From Promethearchaeota archaeon (lineage in GTDB: Archaea; Asgardarchaeota; Thorarchaeia; Thorarchaeales; Thorarchaeaceae), in the NCBI GenBank assembly GCA_014728035.1, contig WJMJ01000131.1:1-64000 (forward strand): DNA of 64,000 bases. Direction: 5' to 3'. The notes under the pieces are model-generated. The model was not told where the DNA came from and did no database searches. It saw only the letters and a list, made by a program, of their open reading frames with translations. A program made the translations under genes and the position numbers. This document shows, piece by piece, positions 22,685 to 64,000 of the stretch; positions within the stretch are counted from its first letter, which is position 1, and every line of letters begins with the position of its first letter.

Positions 22685-22942
22685 TCATGTTAATACTCTG
22701 CCATATTTCATGAAGACAGCACGCATTTTTTCACGATCTACGTGATAGAGAGGTCTACGCATATCAGCCAAGTTAGGAATTTTCTTGCAGATTTTCCAGC
22801 CGACAAGCTTACGGAGAGCAAAACTTACAGTTCTTAGAGGAATATTTGCTTTCTGGCTGATATCCTTTGGGGGCATTGGACCATTTTCCTTCAAGCAATC
22901 TAATACAATAAGCGCACTTCGTGGGATTTCTGTTTGGGACAT
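22685..22942 (-). CDS. Small winged-helix (MarR/ArsR-type) regulator
   Basis: A single winged-helix domain of 85 residues: SALIVLDCLKENGPMPPKDI, then KANIPLRTVSFALRKLVGWK as the recognition helix, then a wing (ICKKIPNLADMRRPLYHV). No sensor domain and no Cys metal site. GAGGTGA lies 8 bases before the ATG. It probably regulates itself or the gene that follows it. The divergent DinB-type gene is the other nearby candidate. Confidence 0.75.
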   Translation of the reverse strand: MSQTEIPRSALIVLDCLKENGPMPPKDISQKANIPLRTVSFALRKLVGWKICKKIPNLADMRRPLYHVDREKMRAVFMKYGRVLT

Positions 22943-61089: not shown

Positions 61090-61608
61090 CTATTCACCCT
61101 CCTTAAGCTTCATCAAATTAGTAGTGTCTAGCATCTTTTGGGTCTCACTCAGATCCAATTCGGGTACATCATCAAGTTCAAGGTCTTCTCGTTCCCAGTC
61201 TGTTGGCTCATACAGACGACCTTTGTCATAAAGTGACTGCCTGGCACTAGTATACCCAGAGGGAGTGATATTTTTTTGAAAAGCCATATTTTTTAGACCG
61301 AAAATGATATCGGTAATATCAATACCTTGTGGACAACGTTCTTGGCAAGTATAGCAAGTGGTACATAACCAAACCATATCGGTCTGCAGCACATCTTCAA
61401 GACCAAAGAGAAGCATTCTCATAAGCTCATGCACTTGGATATTCACTTTGTCACTCACTGGACAACCAGCACTGCACTTTGCACACTGGAAACAAGCAGT
61501 AAGGTCTTGACCACCCAGAAGCTTTGCAACTTTCTGTGTGAACTCTGCATCAAAGGTGTTGAACACCTTTCCTTCGAACGATTTTAATTGACCCCAGGTC
61601 TCGGTCAT
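61090..61608 (-). CDS. hdrC: Heterodisulfide reductase subunit C (HdrC)
   Basis: Electron-relay subunit (~172 aa) with two 4Fe-4S clusters, CFQCAKCSAGCPVS and CTTCYTCQERCPQG (each C-x2-C-x2-C-x3-C), linking HdrA to HdrB. DLTACF... then LWLCTTCYT-type spacing matches HdrC of the soluble complex. The C-terminal half is helical (SGYTSARQSLYDKGRL). ATG 61608 or 61617. The hdrA partner gene lies ~500 bases upstream on the same strand (62131 to the right edge), separated by a small gene. Confidence 0.93.
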   Translation of the reverse strand: MTETWGQLKSFEGKVFNTFDAEFTQKVAKLLGGQDLTACFQCAKCSAGCPVSDKVNIQVHELMRMLLFGLEDVLQTDMVWLCTTCYTCQERCPQGIDITDIIFGLKNMAFQKNITPSGYTSARQSLYDKGRLYEPTDWEREDLELDDVPELDLSETQKMLDTTNLMKLKEGE

Positions 61609-61617
61609 GATATTCAC

Positions 61618-62004
61618 CAGTAACCTTCGAAGCTCCTATCATGAATGAACCACTTATATCAATAGCGTCACGGCACTAAAACGGAAACAGCAAAAACAGT
61701 CACTTGAATAGGTGACTCTTCATTAGTGTCAGCATTATTCTTTACGAAGCGTTTGAAGTAATCATATATCCGTAATTCAGATAGCGGGATTAGAAATAGT
61801 ACCATAAATGAATAATAGAAAAATGAGCCACTAAATCAAATATTTAGTATATTATAGCTTCGTTATTTTAGATAGGAAATCGTATAGGATTCGAATTTCA
61901 AATGATATGGCGAGGCGTGTGTACAGTCAGCCATCTAGTACCTTGATTGTAAGCAGATCTCACTCAGGATAAATACCTCATAACTTTCTAGAGAGGTGAA
62001 ATAC
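61618..62004. other. Intergenic region with hdrC and peptide-gene promoters
   Basis: Roughly 390 bases with no longer ORF. It holds a hairpin (AGTCAC ... GTGACT, around 61706-61726), AT-rich stretches, and near its right end GATAAATACC (about 61969), TATA-like and 35 bases before the small peptide gene. Confidence 0.4.
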
Positions 62005-62058
62005 ATGGCTAAGGACAAGAAGGGAAAAAAGGACAAGAAACCAAAACCAAAAAAATAA
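62005..62058 (+). CDS. 17-residue lysine-rich peptide
   Basis: ATG followed by 16 codons encodes MAKDKKGKKDKKPKPKK, ten Lys of 17. It is preceded by a strong ribosome binding site (GAGAGGTGA, ~5 bases before ATG) and a TATA-like GATAAATACC about 35 bases earlier, and followed at 62086-62108 by a terminator hairpin, so it looks like a complete small transcription unit. A polycationic peptide could bind nucleic acid or a protein partner; I know of no named family. It may alternatively be part of a small RNA. Confidence 0.55.
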   Translation: MAKDKKGKKDKKPKPKK

Positions 62059-62085
62059 CCTGTGAATGGTAATGGAATATAAAAT

Positions 62086-62108
62086 GGGAAGGTACAGCTT
62101 TCCTTCCC
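62086..62108. terminator. Hairpin between the peptide gene and HdrA-MvhD
   Basis: GGGAAGG-N9-CCTTCCC is a perfect 7-bp stem, 28 bases after the peptide stop and 23 bases beyond the HdrA-MvhD stop. Neither side has a long T-tract. Confidence 0.6.
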
Positions 62109-62130
62109 AACAGATTCAATTGGTTAATAT

Positions 62131-64000
62131 CTAGTCCTTCCTTAGGGGACTAGGCCCTAATTTCTCTGCAAGATCCGATAATTTCTTGACAGTATCAGCC
62201 CAGATTGGGCCTTCACTTGCACTAATCTGAGTGAACTGAAGACGGTCGGGTTCAAGACCTGCTTTTTCTATGATTTTCTTGGCGATTGCATATCGGCGTT
62301 CAAAGGAAACATTTCCATCCACATAATGACAGTCTCCAAAATGACAACCTGAAATCCACACCATATCTGCACCCAATCTAAAAGCTTCAAGAATGTGAGT
62401 TACGCTGACCCGTCCCGTACACATCACTCGTATATCTCGAACGGTTGTAGGTTGTTGAAATCTCGATACACCAGCACTATCCGCCCCAGCATAGCTACAC
62501 CAATTGCAAAGAATGGTAAGAATTCGTGGCTGGCTAGCGGGCATATCCTTCAACGCTGACCGCACCTGTGCAAGAATTTGGTCATCAGTGAAATGTTTCA
62601 TTGTAATTGCACCAGCTGGACACCCAGCTGCACATTTTCCACAACCTTGACAAAGAACAGGATTAGGAACAGCATAATCATGGCTTCCATCTCCAGGAAC
62701 AACTTCAATTGCATTGTATGCACAGTTTATCTCACAAGTTCCACATCCCACACAGACTTCTGGATCAACAACAGAAACAATTGCTTCGGCTCTTCGTATA
62801 CCCCTTGCAAGAGGAATTAGAGCTCTTGCAGCAGCTCCTCGTCCTTGAGCAATCGCCTCATCAATTCCTTTGGGAGCGGTAGCTGTTCCTGCAACATAGA
62901 CCCCATCAGTTTGGAAATCAACAGGACGTAGTTTAGGATGAGCTTCCATAAAGAATCCCGACATGTTAAGTGGAACTTTGAATAATTCAGATAATTCTTT
63001 GTTCTTATCTCGAGGAATCATAGCAGTTGCAAGAACAACATGGTCTACATCCAGATTCAACTGAGCACCAAGAATTTGATCCTCCACTTCAATGTGAACA
63101 GCCTTATCTTTCCCTTTCTTAACCACTGGAGGAGTATCACCATCAAAACGAATGAATACGATTCCCCTCTTTCGCGCCTCACGGTATTTATCCTCAACTG
63201 CATAGGGTACACGAAGATCCCGGTAGAGATGAAATATTCGTGAATTAGGATACTTCTCAAGAAGTTCTAGTGAATGCCCGATAGCTACTGAGCAGCAGAT
63301 TCCTGAACACCATGTCCGAGAACCTTCGAGGGATTCTTTCTCACGAGAGCCAGCACAATGAATGACAGCGAAAGTTTCACCATCTTTGATGTCGTCGCCT
63401 GTTGCAACTCGATTATTAAGTTCGACTTCAGTCATAACCTCTGGAATCTTCTTGAGGCCATACAGACCTTCCTCTTCTAGCTGAGTAGCTCCAGTTGCAA
63501 CAATTACAACTCCAACTTTCAATTCATGCTTTTCTTTTCCGGTTTCTACAACAATATCAAAGTCACCAATAGAACCCTTTGCCTCAACCACTTCAGAGGA
63601 GAGATATAGCTCGATGTTCTCATTTTTCTTTATCAGCTCATCATACTGATTTATTATTTCTGAGGTTGAACGAAAGTCAAAATTGACTGTATGTAAGTCA
63701 TTCAATAATCCGCCAATTTGGTCTTCTTTCTCAACTAGATGGACTTTGTATCCTTTATCAGCAATAAGATTAGCAGCAGTCATTCCTGAGACTCCAGCTC
63801 CAATGACAAGAACAGCTGGTTCAATCTCCGTCACAGCTTCTTCTTGAGGTTCTAATAACCGTGAACGTGCAACAGCCATTCGTACAAGATCCATAGCCTT
63901 GGAAGTTGCCTCGTCTTTAGCACCCTGATGTACCCACGAACAATGCTCACGGATGTTTGCCATCTCAAATAGATACTTGTTTAATCCAGCTTCCTCAATA
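62131..64000 (-). CDS. HdrA-MvhD fusion protein, 5' end outside window
   Basis: HdrA FAD subunit fused to an MvhD-type hydrogenase-linking domain. The frame is open to the right edge: codons before ATG 63963 read AGLNKYLFE, which with MANIREHCSWVH is the HdrA N-domain consensus, so the real start lies beyond 64000. Visible parts: FAD loop VIGAGVSGMTAANLIADKG, WCSGICCSVAIGHSLELLEK, clusters CVGCGTCEINCAY and CQGCGKCAAGCPAG, then MvhD (ILCNWCSYAGADSAG, VMCTGRVSV, GCHFGDCHYVDGN). MvhD passes electrons from a hydrogenase or dehydrogenase into HdrA. Upstream of hdrC-hdrB. Confidence 0.92.
   Translation of the reverse strand, partial: IEEAGLNKYLFEMANIREHCSWVHQGAKDEATSKAMDLVRMAVARSRLLEPQEEAVTEIEPAVLVIGAGVSGMTAANLIADKGYKVHLVEKEDQIGGLLNDLHTVNFDFRSTSEIINQYDELIKKNENIELYLSSEVVEAKGSIGDFDIVVETGKEKHELKVGVVIVATGATQLEEEGLYGLKKIPEVMTEVELNNRVATGDDIKDGETFAVIHCAGSREKESLEGSRTWCSGICCSVAIGHSLELLEKYPNSRIFHLYRDLRVPYAVEDKYREARKRGIVFIRFDGDTPPVVKKGKDKAVHIEVEDQILGAQLNLDVDHVVLATAMIPRDKNKELSELFKVPLNMSGFFMEAHPKLRPVDFQTDGVYVAGTATAPKGIDEAIAQGRGAAARALIPLARGIRRAEAIVSVVDPEVCVGCGTCEINCAYNAIEVVPGDGSHDYAVPNPVLCQGCGKCAAGCPAGAITMKHFTDDQILAQVRSALKDMPASQPRILTILCNWCSYAGADSAGVSRFQQPTTVRDIRVMCTGRVSVTHILEAFRLGADMVWISGCHFGDCHYVDGNVSFERRYAIAKKIIEKAGLEPDRLQFTQISASEGPIWADTVKKLSDLAEKLGPSPLRKD

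What the first reader, a model, noticed from the sequence alone, without database searches (positions are those of the whole stretch)
62005..62108. Complete-looking transcription unit for a 17-residue lysine-rich peptide
Strong ribosome binding site, plausible TATA and a terminator hairpin frame an ORF encoding a peptide with ten lysines in 17 residues. It is placed between hdrC and the HdrA-MvhD gene and is too short for ordinary gene calling. It could be a nucleic-acid or acidic-protein binding micropeptide.
Basis: seen in the sequence. Interest (0 to 1): 0.6.

Follow-up and report, generated by a model that had tools for sequence, protein, structure and literature searches.

The report
Conserved lysine-rich Thorarchaeota micropeptide gene
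A tiny gene for a 17-residue, highly positively charged peptide is real and conserved in several Thorarchaeota (Asgard archaea), where in one lineage it has been inserted backwards into a redox-enzyme operon; its function is untested, but sticking to RNA or DNA is the likeliest guess.

Summary
The ORF is real as described: 62005-62058 (+), MAKDKKGKKDKKPKPKK*, ten lysines, strong Shine-Dalgarno sequence (SD) GAGGTGA, hairpin 62085-62109. It is not chance. A same-genus Thorarchaeota genome (isolate BC) encodes the identical peptide with only three, all synonymous, changes. ORF identity is 94%, leader 81%, flanks about 55%. Related SD-led peptides of 17-24 aa occur in five genera of the same family. 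The first-stage reader missed two things. (1) An approximately 90-nt conserved leader carries TGTACAG. Leader motif plus SD plus start matches only four places in 47 family genomes, all at these genes. (2) Relatives have hdrA and hdrC 1-4 bp apart. Only the clade holding the window's genus and one other has a 0.5-1 kb insert, with the peptide gene on the opposite strand, so it is not part of the Hdr system. Best reading: an autonomous, translated, disordered polycationic micropeptide that binds RNA or DNA electrostatically. Translation is strongly supported by sequence. Binding is inferred from composition only. No Pfam, NCBIfam, Rfam or PDB match. Lysine-attenuator leader, eS25 tail fragment and chance ORF are disfavoured. 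In passing: a second, far more widespread Thorarchaeota micropeptide family ending FEW(F/L)A(A/G)(A/T)TR, in 30 of 47 genomes.

The parts
62005..62058 (+). micropeptide ORF, MAKDKKGKKDKKPKPKK*
   Evidence: identical peptide with 3 synonymous changes in G001; relatives
61993..61999 (+). Shine-Dalgarno GAGGTGA, 5 nt before ATG
   Evidence: present in all eight family members
61905..61992 (+). conserved leader (5' UTR/promoter-proximal region)
   Evidence: 81% identity to G001 versus about 55% on either flank
61920..61926 (+). TGTACAG element (near-palindromic; candidate operator or part of leader stem)
   Evidence: TGTACAG + SD + start matches only 4 places in 47 genomes, all micropeptide genes
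61913..61960 (+). candidate leader stem-loop (GAGG..TGTACAGTCA / TGATTGTA..)
   Evidence: pairs kept in G000 and G001 but no two-sided covariation; whole-unit z-score -0.22, so weak
61882..61888 (+). candidate TATA (GTATAGG)
   Evidence: GTATA conserved in G001 at the same place (alignment); no transcript data
62085..62109 (+). 3' hairpin TGGGAAGGTACAGCTTTCCTTCCCA
   Evidence: different hairpins follow the other copies except G001 (by eye); no T-run here
62131..64000 (-). HdrA(-MvhD)-like gene, convergent neighbour, runs off the window
61090..61617 (-). hdrC, divergent neighbour; in relatives it starts 1-4 bp after hdrA
61618..62130 (.). inserted spacer carrying the micropeptide unit, absent from most relatives
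   Evidence: hdrA-hdrC distance 522 bp here, 824 in G001, 1040 in G007, 1-4 bp elsewhere

Best explanation
A single-gene unit with its own promoter and leader, translated into a disordered polycationic micropeptide (17-24 aa, net charge +6.5 to +8.5, almost no hydrophobic residues). Shown by sequence: conserved ORF, SD, leader and frame. Inferred: a transcript starting near 61910, control through the TGTACAG site, and action as an electrostatic binder of polyanions, most likely RNA/ribosome or DNA, comparable to the loose lysine/proline tails of ribosomal proteins and chromatin proteins. The unit is independent of the hdr genes; it was inserted antisense into an hdrA-hdrC operon in the ancestor of two genera.
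For: Identical peptide in G001 with three changes, all at third positions and synonymous (chance 0.7-1.9%). Between the two G007 tandem copies, 8 of 10 changes at third positions (chance of so few amino-acid changes 2-6%). Length differences are whole codons (17, 19, 20, 21, 24 aa). The SD+MAKDK-type pattern gives 6 places in 47 family genomes with no control hits; TGTACAG+SD+start gives 4, all here. Copies in G000 contig C91, G002, G020 and G060 lie next to unrelated genes, so function is not tied to Hdr. Extreme conserved charge. KPKPKPKKKKKKK-type linkers occur in this organism's own eS25 ORF, so such tracts are used on ribosomal proteins here.
Against: No expression, proteomic or binding data. 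Low-complexity lysine peptides can look alike by convergence: a Trujillonella 18-mer and a phage 29-mer resemble it. Third positions are also more conserved than in neighbouring genes (3 of 16 changed versus 44% in hdrC and 57% in hdrB), which leaves room for RNA-level constraint. Patchy distribution (6 of 47 family genomes by these patterns) argues against an essential housekeeping role.
Confidence: 0.55

Rival explanations
1. A small regulatory RNA (about 200 nt) in which the leader is the functional part and the peptide is secondary, or a dual-function RNA.
For: Leader 81% conserved; a leader stem-loop is predicted in both genus members; third positions of the ORF unusually conserved.
Against: All substitutions in the ORF are synonymous and the peptide pattern, not the RNA, survives in distant copies; fold energy no better than shuffles (z -0.22); no Rfam match; no two-sided covariation.
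Confidence: 0.15
2. A cis-acting antisense element that governs the split hdrA/hdrC genes, kept because it separates or interferes with their transcription.
For: Inserted antisense exactly at the hdrA-hdrC junction and kept in two genera.
Against: Copies at unrelated loci; the peptide is conserved; the transcript as bounded by the hairpin does not overlap HdrA coding sequence.
Confidence: 0.07
3. A lysine-sensing attenuator leader peptide followed by a terminator hairpin.
For: Ten Lys codons then a hairpin, as in amino-acid attenuators.
Against: No same-strand gene follows in the window, G001, C91, G002 or G020; the next gene is convergent. Only G060 has a same-strand gene downstream.
Confidence: 0.03
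4. Breakdown product of a larger gene such as the lysine-rich tail of eS25, or a truncated paralogue of the FEW-type micropeptide.
For: Similar KPKPK tract in the eS25 ORF; the FEW peptides share an SD-led K-rich N-terminus.
Against: eS25 does not start with MAKDK and its tract is internal; the TGTACAG leader is absent upstream of the FEW genes; independent purifying selection on the 17-mer.
Confidence: 0.08
5. A chance ORF in an intergenic region.
For: SD+TG pairs are as common as chance in the window; A-rich DNA yields Lys codons.
Against: Cross-genus conservation with synonymous changes and zero control hits.
Confidence: 0.02

Closest known systems
Small basic ribosomal proteins eL41, bTHX, bL37/bS22 (own knowledge)
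   Same: Tens of residues, very basic, encoded as very short genes
   Different: Those are Arg-rich or helical with conserved residues; this one is Lys/Asp/Pro, with no profile match in Pfam, NCBIfam or PDB
Lysine-rich tails of chromatin proteins (histone H1 tail, HMGN) and of archaeal/Asgard histones (own knowledge)
   Same: Disordered K/P/G/D-rich polycation
   Different: Free-standing 17-24 aa peptide, no folded domain; no homology shown
Unannotated archaeal micropeptides found by Ribo-seq (e.g. Methanosarcina mazei, PMC11456600)
   Same: Class of unannotated archaeal small ORF
   Different: No relative identified there; this one rests on comparative genomics only
FEW(F/L)A(A/G)(A/T)TR micropeptides of Thorarchaeota (found here)
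   Same: SD-led, K-rich N-terminal part, 27-30 aa, same genomes
   Different: Conserved C-terminal motif absent here; different locus (often between tRNA-Thr and tRNA-Leu genes); no TGTACAG leader

Membership tests
Translated micropeptide gene | ORF under protein-level constraint | tested here: met
   Only synonymous changes between G000 and G001; 8 of 10 changes at third positions between the G007 copies
Translated micropeptide gene | ribosome binding site conserved with the ORF | tested here: met
   GAGGTGA before all eight family members
Translated micropeptide gene | peptide or ribosome footprints detected | not testable with these tools
   No expression data held
Amino-acid attenuator leader peptide | regulated gene downstream on the same strand | tested here: not met
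   Convergent gene follows in the window, G001, C91, G002 and G020
Ribosomal protein eS25 fragment | matches the eS25 N-terminus of the same genome | tested here: not met
Known RNA family (Rfam) | covariance model match above gathering score | tested here: not met
   only sub-threshold chance matches
Known protein family (Pfam/NCBIfam/PADLOC/PDB) | profile match | tested here: not met
   such short, biased peptides have low power; the 17-mer itself is under the 20-residue limit, relatives were used
Nucleic-acid-binding polycation | binds RNA or DNA | not testable with these tools
   Only charge and composition

The most novel reading that the evidence does not exclude
A mobile, self-contained micropeptide gene of Thorarchaeota, controlled by a palindromic TGTACAG operator, whose free-standing lysine-rich peptide acts as a small RNA/chromatin condensing agent, one of several undetected micropeptide families in Asgard archaea.
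Probability: 0.2. Interest if true: 0.7.

Novelty: new member of a known kind. Interest (0 to 1): 0.45.

Why it matters
Asgard archaea are the closest known prokaryotic relatives of eukaryotes, and their smallest genes fall below ordinary gene callers. This shows that conserved genes as short as 17 codons can be recovered by combining SD, leader and codon-level conservation, and gives a concrete, cheaply testable peptide.

Tried and rejected
Direct protein search with the 17-mer finds only G000 and G001; DNA patterns were needed. First MAFFT alignment used the wrong strand of G001 and is meaningless. One translation call had a wrong frame and one script failed. Rfam, Pfam, NCBIfam, PADLOC and PDB were negative. 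eS25 origin tested and rejected. Attenuator rejected by gene order. The viral-contig scan mostly gave starts of ordinary longer proteins. Bacterial hits of the genome-contig scan are mostly starts of longer proteins. Literature searches found no paper on such an Asgard peptide in the held open-access library.

Full report
Observation. ATG 62005 to stop 62058 encodes MAKDKKGKKDKKPKPKK. The SD GAGGTGA is among the strongest in the window; only 5 of 63 ORF-called genes have a 6-7 nt match. By itself SD+start is not rare, and the hairpin is unremarkable against shuffles and lacks a T-run. The case therefore rests on comparison.

Conservation. A search with the 261 bp around the ORF found one strong match, in the only other genome of the genus, G001 (E 1e-45). 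It encodes the same 17 residues with three third-position synonymous changes. Identity is 94% in the ORF, 81% in the leader 61905-61992, and 55-56% upstream and downstream. Three random substitutions in this ORF would all be silent in 0.7-1.9% of simulations. The two tandem copies in G007 (Thorarchaeota TEKIR_12S) differ at 10 sites, 8 of them third positions; so few amino-acid changes are expected by chance in 2-6% of simulations.

Family. Pattern searches in 47 genomes of the family and 228 of the phylum give these members in the window's family: G000 window copy; G000 contig C91 MAKDKRTPKKDDQKQKTKKTGSSK (TTG start); G001; G002 (TEKIR_14) MAKDKKPAKTQKKKNEKKPKK; G007 MAKNNKGKKTTEEKKQKPKK and MAKDKKGKKTTDEKKKKPKK; G060 MGKDNKQKKKLKPNQKPKK; G020 MKNNKQKKQAKPKPKPKINS. 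G020 is the least certain. Outside the family, G119 MAKNKKRRQTPKRKPQPNPVGQKKK is only a candidate. SD+TGGCNAARRANAARARR gives six places and no control hits. G000 has 8.5% estimated contamination, so the C91 copy could belong to a related strain.

Leader. The motif TGTACAG lies about 60-75 nt before the SD in G000 (both copies), G001 and G060. TGTACAG-N45-75-GAGGTGA-start matches only these four places in 47 genomes. It is nearly palindromic (TCTGTACAGA in G060), so a regulator site is plausible; in G000/G001 it is also part of a predicted stem, without two-sided covariation. G002, G007 and G020 lack the exact motif.

Locus history. On the minus strand relatives have hdrA followed by hdrC 1-4 bp later, wherever the script could measure it (13 genomes; several others look the same by eye). 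In G000, G001 and G007 the gap is 522, 824 and 1040 bp, and holds the micropeptide gene(s) on the opposite strand. An HdrA tree puts these three together (87/78), consistent with one insertion. Other copies sit beside CorA-like, DUF362-like, transcription-regulator-like and flavodoxin-like genes (names from my reading of the translations). So the peptide is not an Hdr component.

Mechanism. Shown: protein-level constraint, SD, conserved leader, independent movement. Inferred: transcription start near 61910, translation, and binding of polyanions by a disordered +6.5 to +8.5 peptide. The same genome uses KPKPKPKKKKKKK-type tracts inside its eS25 ORF, which makes RNA or ribosome association the reading I favour, but nothing here measures binding.

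Rivals. A functional RNA is the main alternative: synonymous change in the ORF (3 of 16 codons) is below that in hdrC (62 of 140) and hdrB (73 of 128). Attenuation fails on gene order. A chance ORF is excluded by conservation.

Novelty. No match in Rfam, Pfam, NCBIfam, PADLOC or PDB, and no paper found. Large small-ORF catalogues such as GMSC (PMC11364881) may hold the sequence unnamed; I could not check. It is a new family of a known kind, the unannotated micropeptide.

In passing. A second micropeptide family, K/R-rich then FEW(F/L)A(A/G)(A/T)TR at the C-terminus, 27-30 aa, SD-led, is present in 30 of 47 genomes of the family, with no match in the other 181 genomes of the phylum and no control hits. 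It often lies between tRNA-Thr(CGT) and tRNA-Leu(GAG) genes. It deserves its own study.

Noticed in passing
G000:C25:181112 (L235, minus strand start 1593) and L226-L255: Second, much more widespread Thorarchaeota micropeptide family: 27-30 aa, SD-led, K/R-rich N-terminus and near-invariant C-terminus FEW(F/L)A(A/G)(A/T)TR; 30 of 47 family genomes, no hits elsewhere in the phylum, often between tRNA-Thr(CGT) and tRNA-Leu(GAG). No credible Pfam or PDB relative.
   Followed up: partly
L003 about 1330-1470 (G001 hdrA-hdrC spacer): Extra block between HdrA and the micropeptide gene with inverted repeat ATCTTGGACAT, possibly a small mobile element (seen by eye).
   Followed up: no
L199, L201, L220 (G120, G125, G126): 327-338 aa protein with a KDKK-type lysine-rich N-terminus, MPKDKKDKKVATKEKVDKKEK..., in another Asgard family.
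   Followed up: no
L180:3883-3972 (IMG/VR phage contig) and L107:2917 (Trujillonella endophytica): Similar-looking lysine-rich short ORFs, MAKDKKKVPKKVPVISKKKTPAPGKKKGK and MAKDKKKKDKKGKKGKKK, probably convergent.
   Followed up: no
L225:1462-2358 (G000:C37): ORF with an eS25-like domain, a long KPEKPKPKPKKKKKKK linker and what looks like a C-terminal helix-hairpin-helix domain: an unusual architecture.
   Followed up: no
window 22686-22942, minus strand: GAGGTGA-led ORF of 85 aa, winged-helix-like (MSQTEIPRSALIVLDCLKENGPMPPKDISQKANI...), short enough to be missed by size cut-offs.
   Followed up: no
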